A stretch of DNA of 64,000 nucleotides, from NCBI RefSeq assembly GCF_002159705.1, contig NZ_NFJD01000003.1, positions 62,001 to 126,000 on the forward strand, written 5' to 3'. The notes beneath the pieces are model-generated. The model was not told the origin of the DNA. It saw only the letters and a list, made by a program, of their open reading frames with translations, and searched no databases. Position 1 is the stretch's first letter. Each line of letters begins with the position of its first letter. The position numbers were made by a program, and so were the translations under genes. This document shows, one piece after another, positions 19,729 through 29,260 of the stretch. This stretch comes from Elusimicrobium sp. An273 (GTDB lineage Bacteria; Elusimicrobiota; Elusimicrobia; Elusimicrobiales; Elusimicrobiaceae).

Positions 19729-19764
19729 CAAAAAACCCCGGGCGTTTTCGCCCGGGGTTTTGCC
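19729..19764. terminator. Terminator of the OmpA-like gene
   Basis: Stem AAACCCCGGGCG/CGCCCGGGGTTT with an A run on the left (T tract for the minus gene ending at 19779). Confidence 0.85.
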
Positions 19765-19778
19765 TGTATGCTTACGAG

Positions 19779-20309
19779 TTAATAAATAGCGTTCCAAACG
19801 CGGGTTGTGAAAGAAAATTCCACCCGGCGGTTGGTGCGGCGGCCGTCGCTGGAGTTATCCAGCGTCAGCGGGCGGTCTTTCCCGTAGGAGTGGATCCGGA
19901 TGCGCTCCGCATTCACGCCGCGGCTGACCAAATAGGCCTTCATCGCCGCCGCGCGCGAGGCGCCCAGCCAATAGTTGTATTCTTTGGAGCCCAACACGTC
20001 CGTATGGCCTTCCACGATTAAATGCAAAGACGGGTGCGAGTTCATCACGTTGGCCACTTTATCCAAGAAAGGATAGGCGTAATCCGGCGGGCGAATAGAG
20101 TCAAACTCGTACGTAATGGCCGGCAGTTTAAGCGTTTTTGCCATGCGGGCCTCGCTTTGGTTGTAAAGTTTTTCGTTCTTCTTGGCCTGTTCTTCAATAA
20201 TAGGGTCGCGCTTGGCCGGCCGCGGGATATCTTCGTCCTGTTTCTGGGCGGAAGAGCACGCGCATAAAGCCGCTGCGCATAAAAATAACAAAACGGATTT
20301 TCCTTTCAT
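19779..20309 (-). CDS. OmpA/Pal-like peptidoglycan-associated lipoprotein
   Basis: Outer-membrane lipoprotein that likely ties the outer membrane to peptidoglycan. The ATG at 20309 follows CAGGAGGAAAC, giving 176 residues with a lipobox LCAC (Cys18). The C-terminal OmpA domain shows IVEGHTDVLGSKEYN, LGASRAAAMKAYLVSRGV, and GRRTNRRVEFSF, including the Asp and Arg that contact diaminopimelate in this family. No tolB or tolQRA neighbours, so it is not clearly Pal. It lies immediately beside the candidate replication origin. Confidence 0.87.
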   Translation of the reverse strand: MKGKSVLLFLCAAALCACSSAQKQDEDIPRPAKRDPIIEEQAKKNEKLYNQSEARMAKTLKLPAITYEFDSIRPPDYAYPFLDKVANVMNSHPSLHLIVEGHTDVLGSKEYNYWLGASRAAAMKAYLVSRGVNAERIRIHSYGKDRPLTLDNSSDGRRTNRRVEFSFTTRVWNAIY

Positions 20310-20376
20310 AAGTTTCCTCCTGTCCAAATTATAGCAAAACCACATAAAAAACGTGTAACAATTTCCATATTCCCAG

Positions 20377-20660
20377 TTATCCACACGCTGTGGATAACCT
20401 GTGGATAATTACGCTTTTACTCTACATTTATCCACAAAAAAGCGTTTTTTGGGGCAAACTTTAAAGCGCGAAAAAGAAGAGTTGTGGATAACCCCGTTTT
20501 TTTGTGGATAACTTTGCCTTTGTATAGGGGAATAATTTATTTTTCCTTCTTTTCCCCGACGGAAAAATTCAAAATGCTTATTTTTTCCCCTCTTTTTATA
20601 TTTTTTAAAAAAACTGTTGACAAGTCGCCTTTTTTTTGCATAAAAGGGCTTTTTTAAAGC
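20377..20660. other. Candidate chromosomal replication origin (oriC): six DnaA boxes plus AT-rich region
   Basis: The only stretch over 300 bp without a gene (20310-20664). Six perfect copies of the consensus TTATCCACA occur within 135 bp: plus strand at 20377-20385 and 20428-20436; minus strand at 20389-20397, 20400-20408, 20483-20491 and 20503-20511. To their right, about 20521-20660, the DNA is strongly AT-rich with T runs and could be the unwinding element. Dense perfect boxes in an intergenic region are the hallmark of bacterial oriC. No dnaA, dnaN or gyrB is nearby, so identity rests on the boxes. A datA-like DnaA titration site is the main alternative. Confidence 0.75.
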
Positions 20661-20664
20661 ATTT

Positions 20665-21636
20665 TTATTGTTTTTTAAGCTTTATTTTTACAGAAAACGC
20701 CTTTTTATCCACACCCCCGCTGATTTTGACCTTTCCCGGCTCCGCACCTGCCACCGGGGTCAGTTCCCCTTTCAGCGGATTCCAATTCAAATAAGGCGGG
20801 CTTATGCGCAACGAATCGGGCACATACGCAAACGTGGCGCCGTTGTTTAACCGCGCGGTTACCGTCAGTATGGATTTTTCATCCGAATCCAACGTCAGCA
20901 CAGGGCAATCCACTTCCGCTTTCAGCCGACGCAAAGTAACGTCTTGCTGCGGGGCCGAAAGATAGTTCCAATCCACCCCTTCAAACAATCCCGCCGCCGA
21001 AGACACATACGCCAAAGCAAAATTTTTGCCGTATTCCAAACCGGCCTGCTCCAATTTTTGCTGAGCCAAGGCCAGCTCGGACTGGCGGCCCGTCACAAAT
21101 ATCCGAGGAGCACCCGATAGCGGCAATTGAAACTGCTCAATCGCATCGGCGCCGGAAGCCAAGGCCACCGCCCCAAACAAATGCGGTTTGGCCAGCAAGG
21201 CCAGTGCCGTCAAGGCGGCATTTTTCCCTTGGGCCGCAATGCCCCGGTGGGAGCTGTCGGCAAAGGTAAGATAATTGGTATCAATATAGGGAATTAACTC
21301 CCGCGAGATAAATTCGATAATCTGTTCCCGGTTTTGATAATCCTCTTCGGTAAAGTCAATCCCCACGGCCAAGACGTGATTTTTTTCCACAAAATCTTGC
21401 GCCTCCTGGGCGTTTTTCGGGCCGGCCCCCAGCACATACACCACCGGATAGCGTTTGGAGAGTGGGACGGCTTTTTCCGGCAGGAAAACGGTCAGCGTAT
21501 GTTGGTTGCCCAATACGGCAGACGGAAAATGCACAAAAGTTTCCCGTCCGGGATTAATAATCATAATTTCTTCTTCCTGGGCCATGCCCCAAGAAGCCAT
21601 CAGTAAACACGCCAGTGCAAGGTAAAATTTTTTCAT
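20665..21636 (-). CDS. Exported esterase-fold protein lacking the nucleophile serine
   Basis: Looks like an alpha/beta hydrolase of the esterase D/enterochelin esterase type, 323 residues with a signal peptide (MKKFYLALACLLMASWGMAQ). RYPVVYVLGAG and ELIPYIDTNY match the family core. Where active members read GHSMGG, this one has GIAAQGKNA, so the catalytic serine is absent, while the flanking ALTALALLAKPHLFGAVALASG framework is kept in pieces. It is probably a non-catalytic binding protein. The C-terminus adds a small beta-rich region. There is no ribosome binding site; TACAAT lies seven bases before the ATG. Confidence 0.7.
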   Translation of the reverse strand: MKKFYLALACLLMASWGMAQEEEIMIINPGRETFVHFPSAVLGNQHTLTVFLPEKAVPLSKRYPVVYVLGAGPKNAQEAQDFVEKNHVLAVGIDFTEEDYQNREQIIEFISRELIPYIDTNYLTFADSSHRGIAAQGKNAALTALALLAKPHLFGAVALASGADAIEQFQLPLSGAPRIFVTGRQSELALAQQKLEQAGLEYGKNFALAYVSSAAGLFEGVDWNYLSAPQQDVTLRRLKAEVDCPVLTLDSDEKSILTVTARLNNGATFAYVPDSLRISPPYLNWNPLKGELTPVAGAEPGKVKISGGVDKKAFSVKIKLKKQ

Positions 21637-24157: not shown

Positions 24158-27100
24158 TTAAGATTCCGACGCTATTAAGGCATAGCCGTCAATCTTTCCG
24201 TCGGAGTCTTTGCAGGCAAACACGTCCCACCCCGTATCTTCGTACAGGCCGTTTTCGTGCAGCAAATCCATCCGCACTTGGAACGCATTGCCGGCGGCGG
24301 AATTCTCGGCCGCTTTAAACATCCGTTTGGAGATATCTTCATTGCGGATTACCTCCGTAAAGAAGTCCCTGCCCACGATATTGCTGGTTCGCCGGCCGGT
24401 AATTTCCAGAAACGGCTTATTGACAAACGTAATGGTGTAATCCAAGTCCATCATCACGGCCGGCATTTCCACATATTCCAACGTGCGGGCCAAAGAGCGG
24501 GACGCTTCGCTGAGCATTTTGCCCGTTTGGCGCAGCTCAATGCGCAGGCTTAACAGGCGGGACATAATACCCATCAGCTCCTCGGCTCCCTGTCCAAAGT
24601 CATGGCGCGGCGCGCGGGAAGCAAAACACAACGCCCCCTGCACCTTGCCGGACACATACAGCGGTGCCGCCAGCAACGAGCCAAAGCCTTTTTCTTTATG
24701 CAGGCAATGCGTGCAGGTGGCGCTGGACAGATCCGGGAAAATGACCACATTTCCGTCCGGCACGTCCACCAAGCATTCTTCCACCGGGAAGGTCATGTAG
24801 CGCTCGATATTAAAGTCATTGTCCGTGACATAGACGATATGGCTTTCCAGGCCCAATTTGCCTTGGTCAAAGCGAATGACCAAGCCCACATCGGCCGGGA
24901 ATGTTTTCAATCCAAACGCCAAGATTTTATCCACTTGTTCGGTAATGGAAAGGCCGGGCTCGCTGGCCAGACGGTACAATTCATGGATTTTCTCGTCGTA
25001 TGCGTGCTGTTCGGACATATCTTTCACCCACAGCACCGTTTCGGCGCGGCCGGTAATCGGAGTAACGGTTGCTTCAAAATAATGCAAGGTACCCGATACT
25101 CGCCATTCAAATTCAAACCGCGTGCTGACATTGATGGACAACGCTTCCTTAATGGCGAACAACGCCCGGGAAGCCGCTTCCTGCGGCCAATACGTGCCCG
25201 GCTTTTTATCCAAAAACACTTTGGAGGCCTGGTCATTGTCAAAATACGCCAAATTGGAATATACTTCCAGCACACGTCCGTCGCTGTCCGTTTTTAAATA
25301 CAACCCCGGCAGCGCCTGCCGCACGCTTTTGAGTTCTTGGGCTTCCTTGGAATCTTTAGACACCTCATCCAATTCTTCGGACAAATCCCGCACGACCACC
25401 AAGGCGGCATCTTTGCTGGGCAAGTCCAGCGCGGTTAGCACCACGTGGGCTTCAAAAGCAGACCCGTCTTTCTTGCGAACGGAAAGCTTAAACGACGTTT
25501 TCCCTTCCAAAGCCAGTTCTTCCTGGGCATGATCCAGAATTTCTTTGCAGCGGCTGGAATTATGTTCTTTATCAAAGAACAAATCTCTAAACGGCATATG
25601 CACCAATTCGTCGTGCGTGAAACCCAACTTGCGGGAAAGGAACTTGTTGGCCTGCTCAATATGCCCGAAACGGCCGTTTTCAAACAAGACCGAGAAAACC
25701 ACCCCTTCCGTGGCTTCCAGCAAGGCGTTTAACTGGGCGGAACGCTCCTCCAGAATTTTCATAATCTGACGGTGGAACGCCATATTGCGCAAGACGAATA
25801 AATACCGCCCGTCCGCTTCTTTTACGGCCGTCAGCCGAATGGCCGTATTTTCCAATCCGCTGGCCAGGTTAATATGATATTCCCGGTTGGCAAGCGAGCC
25901 GTCCTGCTGCAGCGTTTTTAAATCTTCTTCCAGCCGCGGCAGGGAGTCCGCATCAAACAAGCGGCGCAAATCCTGCCCGATCAGCTCGTCTTCCTCCAAT
26001 TGGCACAGGGAGCAAAATAAATCATTGCAAACTTCTATTTTCCAGCCATCTCCACACAAAGCGTACGGCTCACTATTGGGCAACACCAACATCTCTTGCG
26101 AAGTTTTGCTAATAATCATCGGCGGAGCCGGCGGTTTAGGCGCCGTATGTTCCTGCGGTTTAGGCGCAGCGGGCGCTTCCGGCTGTTTGGGCGCGGCCGG
26201 CGGAGGCGGAACAACCGGGGCGGATTTTGCTTCTTTCCGCTCCAAGAACACCACGTAATCGGCCTCTACGGTGCCGTCTTTTGCGTCGCGCTTATTAATC
26301 GGCACGAAACTCACCGAAAGCGGCAATTTTCCAGTTCCTTCAATCCGGCCCGGGAACATTTTAGCCGCCCGGTCAAAGTCAAACACATAATCCATATGAG
26401 CGGGCTGTCCGGCACGCAGCTGCTTGCGCGCCGCCAAGGAAACGGCCGGTTTCATATAGACGTTTCGGTAGAAGTTTTTGTCCGCGTCCGTAAAATCAAA
26501 CATTTTCCGGCACGCTTCATTCATCACGCTGATATAGCCTTTGTGCGACAGAATAAAAGCGGGCGTAACGCTTTTTTCAAACGCGGCGCGGAAGCATTCC
26601 CGCTCGGTTTTCACTTCCCGCAGCATCCGGTTGGAAGACGTTACATCGCGCACGAAGCACAGCACAATGCGCCGGCCCAAGTATTTCGAGGCCACCGCCG
26701 CAAACTCCGTTTCCACTTCCTGCCCGCCTTTCTTGAGAAAATGAACATCAATGGCGGAAGAGGCATCGTCCGCCCCGGAAACCACGGCGTCATACTTGTC
26801 TTTCAGGAACATCTGGTGGTCTTCGGCCACCATATCCAAAATTTTCTTTCCGGTTACTTCTTTTACATCTTCATAATTTAAGATATGGCACAAGGCGCGG
26901 TTGGCATAAATTATTTTTCCGTCTTCCAGGATGATAATGCCTTCGCGGGCGTTTTCCACCAGCAGGGTGTTTTTGTCGCTGGCTTCGCGGATTTGCTTTT
27001 CCATTTTGGTCTTGGCCGTAATATCTTCCGATACCACCAACAGACAATTGGGCGTGCCGTCCACATTAAACACAGGCGTTTTTACCGTGTGCATAATTTT

Positions 27101-29260
27101 TACGCCTTCATTGGCGGTAGAAATCAGCTCTTGCGGGATATCCTGTTCTTTTTTGCTTTCAAACACGCGCAAGTCCGCTTCCCGCAGGAACTCCGCCTGG
27201 TCTTTGTTAATATCCACCCGGTACGAAGTCCGCCCGATGACCGATTCGGCCATTACGCCAAAGAGTTCCTCGCTCTTCTTATTCCACAAGATGTATTTTC
27301 CGTCGTAATCTTTAACCGACAGCGAAACCGGCAGGTTATTGATAACCGTCTGCAGGAAGTTTTTGGCGTCAATAATGGCTTTTTCCTGCGCTTTCTTTTC
27401 GGTAATATCATCGGCCACCGTCAGCACCATAAACGGTTTGCCTTCTTTATCAAACACCGGGGCCTTAATTAAATGCAGCAAAATTTTGTTCCCGCGCAGC
27501 GTGGTATACCACTCTTCCGGGAATTCCACCGTTTTGCCGTCTTTAAAAATGGCCTTTTCGCGCTGGCCGTAAAAATCGTCCTTGGCCAGATATTCCTGCT
27601 CATCGGGGAATAATTCGTGCGCGCGGCGGTTGACAAAGGACATCTTATCATCCAGCCCGCGTGCATAAATGGCCACAGGCACCTGATCCAGCAAGGTCTG
27701 CAGGAAGTTTTTGGTTTCCACCAAGGCCCGTTCCTGCGCCCGTTTTTCGGTAATATCTTCCACCAGCGTTACCACAAATTGCGGCTCGCCGTTGCCCTCC
27801 TCGGACACGGGTACTTTTACCATATGCAACAGTTTCTTTTCCCCGCCGCCGGTAAGATACTCTTCTTCCGGTATGTCCAGCGTTTTGCCGCTTTCCAGCA
27901 ACGCTCTTTCCCGTGCGATGTATTCATGCACCTGTTCCGGCGTTTCGTGCGGCAACGAGCCGGTAGAGTCAAACGCCTTATCCGACACTTCGCCAAAAAT
28001 TTCTTCGCACTGCTTGTTGCGCAGCAGCATTCGGCCGTCCGCCGCACGGGCATACAACCCGATAGGCGCGTTTTGCACGATGGCCGATAAGAAACTGTTG
28101 GCCCGGGCCACTTCTTTTTCTTGGCGGCGGCGGTCGGTAATATCCTCCACAATGGTCAGCACCAACGGTTTCGGCCCCGCATCCATCAGCGGGACTTTAA
28201 TCATATGCAGAATTTTTTCATTGCCGGCATGATCCACATACGGCTCTTCCGGATAATCTTTAATTTTCCCTTCACTTAACACCTGCTGCTCCCGGGTATA
28301 ATGAAAAGAAACGACATCCTTATCCTGATGCGGATGCGGGCTGTTGACGCATTTTACGTCCGTTTCGCCCAGCACTTTCATGCTTTGGCGGTTAAAAAAG
28401 GTCATCTGGTTATCACAGTCCCGCGTGTATAAGCCCAGCGGCACATTGTCCAGCACGGCGCGCAGCAACGTGCGGTTTTGCAGCAAATCCTGCTCGTAGC
28501 GCTGGCGCATGGTCACATCTTCGTAAATGGTTAAAATGGCTTTATTTTTATTGTTTTCCGACGGCGTAAAAACTTTGGTGACAGACAGGGTGCGCTCTTC
28601 CCCTTTTGCGTCTTTATACGAAAGCAGCACGTTTTCCCGCGGGCGTTGTTTGTCGCGCACCTGTTCGTCCAATCGCTGCACGGAAGCGACGATTTCTTTC
28701 GGCAAAAATTCATATACCGAATGATTGTGCGTTTGTTCGGCCTTAAAACCGAAAATCTTTTCCGCCGCCGTATTCCATAACGTACAAACGCCCGCCAAAT
28801 TTTGCACGGTAACGGCCACGGGATAATTGTTGATGACCGAACTCAAAAAACTTTTTTCGGCATTCAGCTGTTTAAAATGGGGCACAAATTCCAACGTCAG
28901 CATAATAAACGGCGTGGAAGCCAAAAAGCTGGCCCCCGCACTGACGTAGACGGCATCCGCTTCCCGGTTGACTAACTGGATGATTGTTTTATTGGGCTCT
29001 TTTTCTTCCGCCATCGCGCGCACTTTTTCCATTGTAAGTCCCAGCCGCTCCACGCCGGTGCCGTTTAAATCCGAAATTTCCGTACGCAAAACGGAAGCGG
29101 CCCCCGCATTGGCAAACACGATTTTGCCCGTCGCGTTTAACAGCAAAATAGCCGTAGGAAACTGCTGCAGAAAAGCCAGCATTTCCGGCGTAAGCGTTTT
29201 GATTACCTGTTCGGCAGGGAGATCTTTCTTGGAAAAAAACGAGAAAAAGTTATTGGACAT
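24158..29260 (-). CDS. Giant multi-PAS/GAF protein without an output domain
   Basis: Cytoplasmic, 1,700 residues, no signal peptide or membrane segment. By inspection it has about 12 PAS domains: roughly 20-130, 136-255, 260-385, 387-515, 517-635, 637-765, 767-890, 893-1005, then a proline/alanine-rich linker (about 1009-1046), 1050-1165, 1170-1300, 1305-1425, a GAF domain (about 1430-1580) and a last PAS to the end. PAS 3-6 are near-copies with the recurring ends IVEDITDRR, LVEDITEKR, VADDITEKK, and VSEDITAKT, implying internal duplication. The GAF has a CTHC motif near 1513-1520. No HisKA/HATPase, GGDEF, EAL, PP2C or HTH domain is seen; the gene ends ALIASES with its own terminator. GAGGG precedes the ATG. 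Function: an input-only sensor or scaffold, inferred. Confidence 0.85.
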   Translation of the reverse strand: MSNNFFSFFSKKDLPAEQVIKTLTPEMLAFLQQFPTAILLLNATGKIVFANAGAASVLRTEISDLNGTGVERLGLTMEKVRAMAEEKEPNKTIIQLVNREADAVYVSAGASFLASTPFIMLTLEFVPHFKQLNAEKSFLSSVINNYPVAVTVQNLAGVCTLWNTAAEKIFGFKAEQTHNHSVYEFLPKEIVASVQRLDEQVRDKQRPRENVLLSYKDAKGEERTLSVTKVFTPSENNKNKAILTIYEDVTMRQRYEQDLLQNRTLLRAVLDNVPLGLYTRDCDNQMTFFNRQSMKVLGETDVKCVNSPHPHQDKDVVSFHYTREQQVLSEGKIKDYPEEPYVDHAGNEKILHMIKVPLMDAGPKPLVLTIVEDITDRRRQEKEVARANSFLSAIVQNAPIGLYARAADGRMLLRNKQCEEIFGEVSDKAFDSTGSLPHETPEQVHEYIARERALLESGKTLDIPEEEYLTGGGEKKLLHMVKVPVSEEGNGEPQFVVTLVEDITEKRAQERALVETKNFLQTLLDQVPVAIYARGLDDKMSFVNRRAHELFPDEQEYLAKDDFYGQREKAIFKDGKTVEFPEEWYTTLRGNKILLHLIKAPVFDKEGKPFMVLTVADDITEKKAQEKAIIDAKNFLQTVINNLPVSLSVKDYDGKYILWNKKSEELFGVMAESVIGRTSYRVDINKDQAEFLREADLRVFESKKEQDIPQELISTANEGVKIMHTVKTPVFNVDGTPNCLLVVSEDITAKTKMEKQIREASDKNTLLVENAREGIIILEDGKIIYANRALCHILNYEDVKEVTGKKILDMVAEDHQMFLKDKYDAVVSGADDASSAIDVHFLKKGGQEVETEFAAVASKYLGRRIVLCFVRDVTSSNRMLREVKTERECFRAAFEKSVTPAFILSHKGYISVMNEACRKMFDFTDADKNFYRNVYMKPAVSLAARKQLRAGQPAHMDYVFDFDRAAKMFPGRIEGTGKLPLSVSFVPINKRDAKDGTVEADYVVFLERKEAKSAPVVPPPPAAPKQPEAPAAPKPQEHTAPKPPAPPMIISKTSQEMLVLPNSEPYALCGDGWKIEVCNDLFCSLCQLEEDELIGQDLRRLFDADSLPRLEEDLKTLQQDGSLANREYHINLASGLENTAIRLTAVKEADGRYLFVLRNMAFHRQIMKILEERSAQLNALLEATEGVVFSVLFENGRFGHIEQANKFLSRKLGFTHDELVHMPFRDLFFDKEHNSSRCKEILDHAQEELALEGKTSFKLSVRKKDGSAFEAHVVLTALDLPSKDAALVVVRDLSEELDEVSKDSKEAQELKSVRQALPGLYLKTDSDGRVLEVYSNLAYFDNDQASKVFLDKKPGTYWPQEAASRALFAIKEALSINVSTRFEFEWRVSGTLHYFEATVTPITGRAETVLWVKDMSEQHAYDEKIHELYRLASEPGLSITEQVDKILAFGLKTFPADVGLVIRFDQGKLGLESHIVYVTDNDFNIERYMTFPVEECLVDVPDGNVVIFPDLSSATCTHCLHKEKGFGSLLAAPLYVSGKVQGALCFASRAPRHDFGQGAEELMGIMSRLLSLRIELRQTGKMLSEASRSLARTLEYVEMPAVMMDLDYTITFVNKPFLEITGRRTSNIVGRDFFTEVIRNEDISKRMFKAAENSAAGNAFQVRMDLLHENGLYEDTGWDVFACKDSDGKIDGYALIASES

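What the first reader, a model, noticed from the sequence alone, without database searches (positions are those of the whole stretch)
20310..20664. Candidate oriC with six perfect DnaA boxes and no dnaA neighbour
Six exact TTATCCACA boxes, two plus and four minus, fall within 135 bp of the only gene-free stretch over 300 bp, beside about 140 bp of very AT-rich DNA. Boxes this dense and this perfect are expected only at a replication origin or a DnaA titration locus. The flanking genes (OmpA-like lipoprotein and a serine-less esterase) are not the usual dnaA-dnaN-recF context, so an annotation pipeline keyed to dnaA would miss it.
Basis: partly seen in the sequence, partly recalled or inferred. 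Interest (0 to 1): 0.75.

Follow-up and report, generated by a model that had tools for sequence, protein, structure and literature searches.

The report
DnaA-binding control site, not the origin
A rigidly built array of binding sites for the replication-starter protein DnaA sits far from the real replication origin in a family of gut Elusimicrobiota bacteria, and its geometry resembles the E. coli sites that switch DnaA on and off.

Summary
It is not oriC. dnaA-dnaN lies on another contig, has its own boxes, and GC skew flips there in the own genome and two same-genus genomes. In a single-contig genome of a sister genus the same array sits 339 kb from dnaA, mid-replichore. In 41 of 41 relatives with enough flank the esterase-side flank shows no origin-type skew switch.

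The array is strongly conserved in the genus, with near-fixed spacings: +, 12, -, 11, -, 83-87, -, 20, -, about 110-118 to a TTGTC(A/C)ACA site, then a + box. Boxes 1-3 (one forward, two reverse) repeat the orientation of the E. coli DARS1/DARS2 core, but with spacings 12/11 instead of 14/12.

Best explanation: an extra-oriC DnaA-regulating nucleoprotein locus (DARS/datA-type in how it works, not a proven member), beside a Pal/OmpA-like lipoprotein promoter. In four genomes the array is separated from that promoter yet intact. Biochemistry is untested.

The parts
20377..20385 (+). DnaA box b1 (box I of the DARS-like triad)
   Evidence: exact; 33 of 54 relatives exact, TTATCAACA in 9
20389..20397 (-). 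DnaA box b2 (box II), facing b1, 12 bp start to start
   Evidence: exact; 25 of 54 exact, 22 with one mismatch
20400..20408 (-). DnaA box b3 (box III), tandem to b2 at 11 bp
   Evidence: exact; 45 of 54 exact, 9 with one mismatch
20415..20426 (.). TTTTACTCTACA, conserved non-box motif at fixed distance from b3; binding factor unknown
   Evidence: only exact copy in the own genome
20428..20436 (+). extra exact DnaA box, lineage-specific
   Evidence: exact; 2 of 54 exact; column conservation 0.45
20483..20491 (-). DnaA box b4
   Evidence: exact; 50 of 54 exact
20503..20511 (-). DnaA box b5, 20 bp from b4
   Evidence: exact; 49 of 54 exact; b4-b5 spacing 20 in 56 of 57
20556..20562 (.). CCGACGG, conserved inverted repeat 53-55 bp from b5; binding factor unknown
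20525..20700 (.). AT-rich segment (73% AT) of low duplex stability
   Evidence: least stable 100 bp (from 20591) within the least stable 0.25% of sampled own-genome positions
20615..20623 (-). DnaA box variant b6, TTGTCAACA (reads TGTTGACAA on +)
   Evidence: TTGTCAACA in 50 and TTGTCCACA in 6 of 56 loci; column conservation 0.99
20705..20713 (+). DnaA box b7, inside the esterase 3' end
   Evidence: exact; 34 of 54 exact
20328..20336 (-). extended -10 (TGC-TATAAT) of the lipoprotein promoter
   Evidence: sequence; near-invariant in relatives
19779..20309 (-). OmpA/Pal-like lipoprotein gene
   Evidence: PF00691 E=3.6e-16; Pal and YiaD models below cut-off
20665..21636 (-). esterase-like gene (PF00756)
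   Evidence: E=1.5e-5

Best explanation
An extra-oriC DnaA-regulating locus of the Elusimicrobiaceae. DnaA molecules bind b1-b5, the weak site b6 and b7, and assemble a phased nucleoprotein complex over about 340 bp of partly AT-rich DNA. In it b1 and b2 hold two DnaA molecules face to face, with a third on b3 next to b2, as in the core of E. coli DARS1 and DARS2. The complex adjusts the supply of initiation-competent DnaA, either by changing the bound nucleotide (DARS- or datA-like) or by plain titration. Shown here: the sites, their conservation, spacing and orientation, and that the locus is not the skew-defined origin. Inferred: that DnaA binds it, that bound DnaA forms one complex, and that this controls initiation. 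Within this reading I put DARS-type nucleotide exchange at about 0.3 and titration or datA-type inactivation at about 0.3.
For: Boxes far beyond chance. Array present upstream of the lipoprotein gene: at least 3 exact boxes in 50 of 58 named loci with upstream sequence; mean column conservation 0.93-0.99 in b1-b6 and 0.80 in b7, against 0.55 in other intergenic columns. Near-fixed spacings. Site 6 alternates between TTGTCAACA and TTGTCCACA, as expected of a DnaA box and not of a -35 hexamer. The array is intact in loci where it is separated from the promoter by 162, 198, 259 and 743 bp, in one of them (L210) with a pilin-like gene between. Same geometry in sister genus g13 (G090: spacings 20, 83, 11, 12). 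Orientation + - - as in MG1655 DARS1 and DARS2 and as described for DARS. Mid-replichore in G090. DnaA with its DNA-binding domain is present.
Against: No binding or phenotype data. Triad spacing 12/11 differs from DARS 14/12. IHF and Fis sites were not identified; only one HU/IHF-family gene was found. The distance from array to promoter clusters at about one helical turn apart in most genomes, which fits a transcription role. Distance from oriC is not fixed in the genus, as far as could be seen.
Confidence: 0.6

Rival explanations
1. The array is mainly a DnaA-controlled promoter region that ties expression of the Pal/OmpA-like lipoprotein to the replication cycle; effects on replication are incidental.
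For: A near-invariant extended -10 lies next to the array. In 52 of 56 loci the -10 to b3 distance is 58-87, in groups near 58-64, 69-75 and 83-87, about one helical turn apart, with none at 76-82 (three of these, L193, L226 and L229, are mis-anchored there and read otherwise).
Against: The array stays intact when moved 162-743 bp from the promoter in 4 of 56 loci, one with a foreign gene between. It spans about 340 bp and reaches into the next gene, more than promoter control needs. The distance groups follow relatedness and may be only a few independent events.
Confidence: 0.25
2. It is the chromosomal origin, or a second working origin.
For: Dense perfect boxes beside an AT-rich, unstable segment.
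Against: Skew switches at dnaA in the own genome, G016, G030 and G090. Esterase-side flank skew positive on the lipoprotein strand in 41 of 41 loci, where an origin would make it negative. dnaA-dnaN has its own conserved boxes. No DnaA-trio seen by eye next to the boxes. Other segments, such as that upstream of dnaA, are less stable.
Confidence: 0.05
3. A copy of an ancestral origin module that moved away from dnaA and was kept as a DnaA site.
For: In the related family f2 the pair TGTGGATAACTTGTGGATAA, identical to b2-b3 in several relatives, overlaps the dnaA start, and G041 carries a second copy of that module away from dnaA.
Against: Similarity to the window locus is limited to about 21 bp; the flanks differ. 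Tandem pairs at 11 bp may arise independently.
Confidence: 0.1

Closest known systems
E. coli DARS1 and DARS2
   Same: Intergenic, away from oriC, between origin and terminus. Core of three boxes with box I opposite to II and III. DARS2, like this array, has further boxes in a stretch of several hundred bp.
   Different: Triad spacing 12/11 instead of 14/12. Boxes are mostly perfect here. IHF and Fis sites not identified. Different phylum, no sequence homology claimed. Nucleotide exchange untested.
E. coli datA
   Same: Several strong boxes outside oriC in fixed arrangement; in MG1655 an inverted pair at 12 bp, the b1-b2 distance.
   Different: datA has an essential IHF site and lies near oriC; here no IHF site was identified and the position is mid-replichore in G090.
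B. subtilis DnaA-box clusters (DBCs)
   Same: Box clusters outside the origin; removing all six gives early initiation (review passages).
   Different: There are six clusters in that species; here I found one dominant array per genome.
oriC with DnaA-box pair and DnaA-trio (BUS)
   Same: Tandem boxes and AT-rich DNA.
   Different: Not at the skew switch, not beside dnaA, no trio seen by eye.

Membership tests
chromosomal oriC | lies at the GC-skew switch (origin type) | tested here: not met
   switch is at dnaA in G000, G016, G030, G090; 41 of 41 flanks
chromosomal oriC | cluster of DnaA boxes | tested here: met
chromosomal oriC | AT-rich unwinding element | tested here: inconclusive
   least stable 0.25% of sampled positions, but dnaA upstream is less stable still
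chromosomal oriC | DnaA-trio next to a box | tested here: inconclusive
   none seen by eye sequence; no scoring program run
DARS | three-box core, box I opposite to II and III | tested here: met
   exact triad in 18 of 294 phylum genomes, all in the window's genus
DARS | core spacing as in DARS1 and DARS2 (14 and 12 start to start) | tested here: not met
   12 and 11 here; 14 and 12 measured in MG1655
DARS | located between oriC and ter, intergenic | tested here: met
   G090: 339 kb from dnaA, ter-type switch at about 750-820 kb
DARS | IHF and Fis sites (DARS2) | not tested
   one HU/IHF-family gene found; sites and Fis not searched
DARS | promotes ADP release from DnaA | not testable with these tools
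   -
datA | IHF site between essential boxes; near oriC | tested here: not met
   position only: mid-replichore in G090; IHF site not tested
datA | stimulates DnaA-ATP hydrolysis | not testable with these tools
   -
extra-oriC DnaA-box cluster (general) | conserved box cluster away from the origin, beyond chance | tested here: met
extra-oriC DnaA-box cluster (general) | bound by DnaA, affects initiation | not testable with these tools

The most novel reading that the evidence does not exclude
A DnaA-reactivating (DARS-type) nucleotide-switch locus evolved outside the Proteobacteria, with a compact face-to-face triad and helically phased outer boxes, and in most species is also phase-locked to the promoter of a Pal-like envelope lipoprotein, so that one DnaA complex sets both replication timing and an envelope gene.
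Probability: 0.25. Interest if true: 0.8.

Novelty: new variant of a known kind. Interest (0 to 1): 0.6.

Why it matters
The known loci that switch DnaA between active and inactive forms (datA, DARS1, DARS2) are described in E. coli and its proteobacterial relatives. A geometrically similar site, conserved over a family of another phylum, would show that control of DnaA by dedicated chromosomal sites is either ancient or has evolved repeatedly, and gives a natural set of dozens of variants from which the geometric rules can be read. It also warns that box density alone mislabels origins: here the non-origin site has more and better boxes than the skew-defined origin.

Tried and rejected
oriC reading: rejected on skew and on the complete sister-genus genome. 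Sigma-70 promoter at TTGACA (20617): considered and set aside, because the downstream hexamer is not conserved, the scan does not list it, and six loci read TTGTCCACA there, which destroys TTGACA but keeps a DnaA box. Structured RNA: only sub-threshold Rfam hits. Mobile-element origin: nothing in the ten proteins scanned by Pfam suggests Rep, and conservation at one place in the genus argues against it. Search for other copies of the TTTTACTCTACA and AACTGTTGACAAG motifs in the own genome gave no second exact copy. Using gene order to fix the array's distance from oriC in the own genome failed: order is scrambled outside the dnaA region. A helical-phasing argument for promoter control was found but weakened by the four separated loci. 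Rows dropped: L248 (no upstream sequence); L210, L220, L226 and L230 from the 54-sequence alignment; L220; loci with under 3 kb on a side.

Full report
OBSERVATION. Chance would give 0.27 in the whole window; local shuffles of 20310-20720 gave at most one in 5000 trials against seven observed. The own genome (1.50 Mb, 14 contigs; the window is contig C3, 62001-126000) has 27 exact boxes, seven of them here.

NOT THE ORIGIN. A full-length dnaA (N-terminal, AAA+ and DNA-binding domains) lies on contig C1 at 511 kb, followed by dnaN, gyrB and gyrA, with two exact and several near boxes at the end of dnaA and before dnaN. GC skew of sampled stretches is negative up to about 510 kb of C1 and positive after 520 kb, with the minimum in the bin ending at 512.5 kb. 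All C3 samples, the window included, are negative with no switch at the array. In G016 the switch is between 45-55 and 55-65 kb of its contig C3, with dnaA at 54.4 kb, while the array lies inside a 699-kb contig whose 17 sampled stretches are positive but for one at -0.002. In G030 the switch is at dnaA (219.5 kb), and the array lies about 10-20 kb before a terminus-type (positive to negative) change. In 41 named loci with at least 3 kb on both sides, read with the lipoprotein gene on +, the esterase-side flank is positive in 41 of 41; the other flank is positive in 35 and between -0.000 and -0.019 in 6. An origin would make the first flank negative.

A SINGLE-CONTIG SISTER GENUS. G090 (genus g13 of the same family, one contig of 1,643,562 bases; by its length probably E. 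minutum Pei191, recalled, not verified) has dnaA at 0.6-1.9 kb and dnaN at 2.1-3.2 kb. Sampled skew is mostly positive to 750 kb and mostly negative from 820 kb, with small exceptions (-0.013 at 15-20 kb, -0.023 at 330-335 kb, -0.002 at 660 kb, +0.042 at 1620-1625 kb). The array lies at 338.7-338.9 kb, roughly two fifths of the way to the terminus. Its boxes keep the spacings 20, 83, 11 and 12, with TTATCAACA in the three triad boxes, and TTGTCAACA stands at site 6.

CONSERVATION. Of 59 named loci found with the lipoprotein alignment (gut Elusimicrobiaceae MAGs, one title naming Candidatus Avelusimicrobium), 58 hold upstream sequence; 50 have at least three exact boxes within 620 bp, 6 have one or two, and 2 have none. 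Of those two, L249 is a distant relative, and L210 keeps the whole array 743 bp away behind an inserted pilin-like gene. Outside this 620-bp stretch the loci hold 11 exact boxes in 495,551 bases, several of them L210's displaced array. In 54 aligned sequences the exact counts are b1 33, b2 25, b3 45, b4 50, b5 49, b7 34, and the 20428 box 2. Over 48 non-redundant sequences, mean column conservation is b1 0.94, b2 0.93, b3 0.98, b4 0.99, b5 0.99, b6 0.99, b7 0.80, against 0.55 for other intergenic columns and 0.45 for the 20428 box. Spacings: b2-b3 11 in all but one; b3-b4 83-87 (74 in two); b4-b5 20 in 56 of 57; b5 to TTGACA 112-117; TTGACA to b7 88-91 (78-79 in three). The few larger changes are near one helical turn. 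Two other motifs stay in register, TTTTACTCTACA and CG(A/T)CG. In genus g12 and other family members the picture is mixed: of 19 loci examined, g12 loci such as L286, L288-L292 and L294 have a 20-bp pair and inverted boxes at other distances, while L287, L293, L297 and L300 have none. In the other family of the order (f2) tandem pairs occur mainly at dnaA, not at this gene.

SITE 6. TGTTGACAA on + (TTGTCAACA on -) looks like a -35 hexamer, but six of 56 loci have TTGTCCACA there, and the same variants replace boxes b1 and b2 in some genomes (TTATCAACA in 9 of 54 at b1; TGTTGATAA 4 and TGTTGACAA 1 of 54 at b2). I read it as a weaker DnaA site.

GEOMETRY COMPARED WITH KNOWN SITES. Scanning MG1655 regions gave, for the DARS1 core, + - - with start distances 14 and 12; for the DARS2 core, + - - with 14 and 12; and in the datA region an inverted pair at 12. 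The reviews say that box I opposes II and III, that spacing is the same in DARS1 and DARS2, and that the face-to-face arrangement of I and II is characteristic and essential (PMC5742627 sections 20 and 21; PMC10380432 passages; PMC8682772 passages). The window's b1-b2-b3 is + - - at 12 and 11. An exact triad with flexible gaps occurs in 18 of 294 genomes of the phylum, all in this genus; the places in genomes whose lipoprotein locus was mapped fall at it. In sampled own-genome DNA (0.62 Mb) no other triad reached two or fewer mismatches; the only other hit with three is an overlap reading of the same site. So orientation is met, spacing is not, and I do not file it as a DARS.

PROMOTER. The lipoprotein gene has a near-invariant extended -10 (TTTTGCTATAAT) next to the array. 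The -10 to b3 distance falls in groups near 58-64, 69-75 and 83-87 with none at 76-82, but is 162, 198, 259 and 743 in four of 56 loci with the array still intact. One search, with another anchor, gives the same groups shifted by about four. This supports some coupling to transcription in most species and shows that the array does not depend on it in all.

WHAT IS SHOWN AND WHAT IS INFERRED. Shown: boxes, conservation, spacing, orientation, position away from the skew switch. Inferred: binding by DnaA, one complex, control of initiation. Confidence in an extra-oriC DnaA-control locus is 0.6; in mainly promoter control 0.25; in an origin 0.05. Novelty: full-text searches for Elusimicrobi with DnaA box (two papers; one of them, PMC5109545, read in passages, does not describe this), for DARS-like or datA-like sites (listing only) and for Elusimicrobiaceae with replication origin (listing only) found no description; subscription papers are not in that library.

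Noticed in passing
L189:7990-8082 (G041:C21 about 16.0-16.1 kb): A second copy of the dnaA-upstream module of family f2 (TTATCAACA, A-rich tract, CTATTAACAGT, box pair at 11 bp), away from dnaA, between a MlaD-like and an ABC-transporter gene.
   Followed up: partly
f2 dnaA loci L116, L118, L121, L122, L124: In family f2 the tandem box pair overlaps the apparent dnaA start, and on the box strand is followed by TAG/TAA triplets that look like a DnaA-trio (by eye).
   Followed up: partly
L002:49-2667 (G000:C4 about 151.6-154.3 kb): A long protein (at least 872 aa) with a DnaA-type AAA+ domain and no DnaA DNA-binding domain found; a second Bac_DnaA hit of similar kind occurs in nearly all relatives. 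Best Hda model far below cut-off.
   Followed up: partly
L210:4343-4885: Type IV pilin-like gene inserted between the array and the lipoprotein gene.
   Followed up: partly
   Followed up: no
window 24158-29260: 1700-aa protein made almost wholly of PAS and GAF domains.
   Followed up: no
window 19732-19761: Strong terminator-like hairpin downstream of the lipoprotein gene.
   Followed up: no
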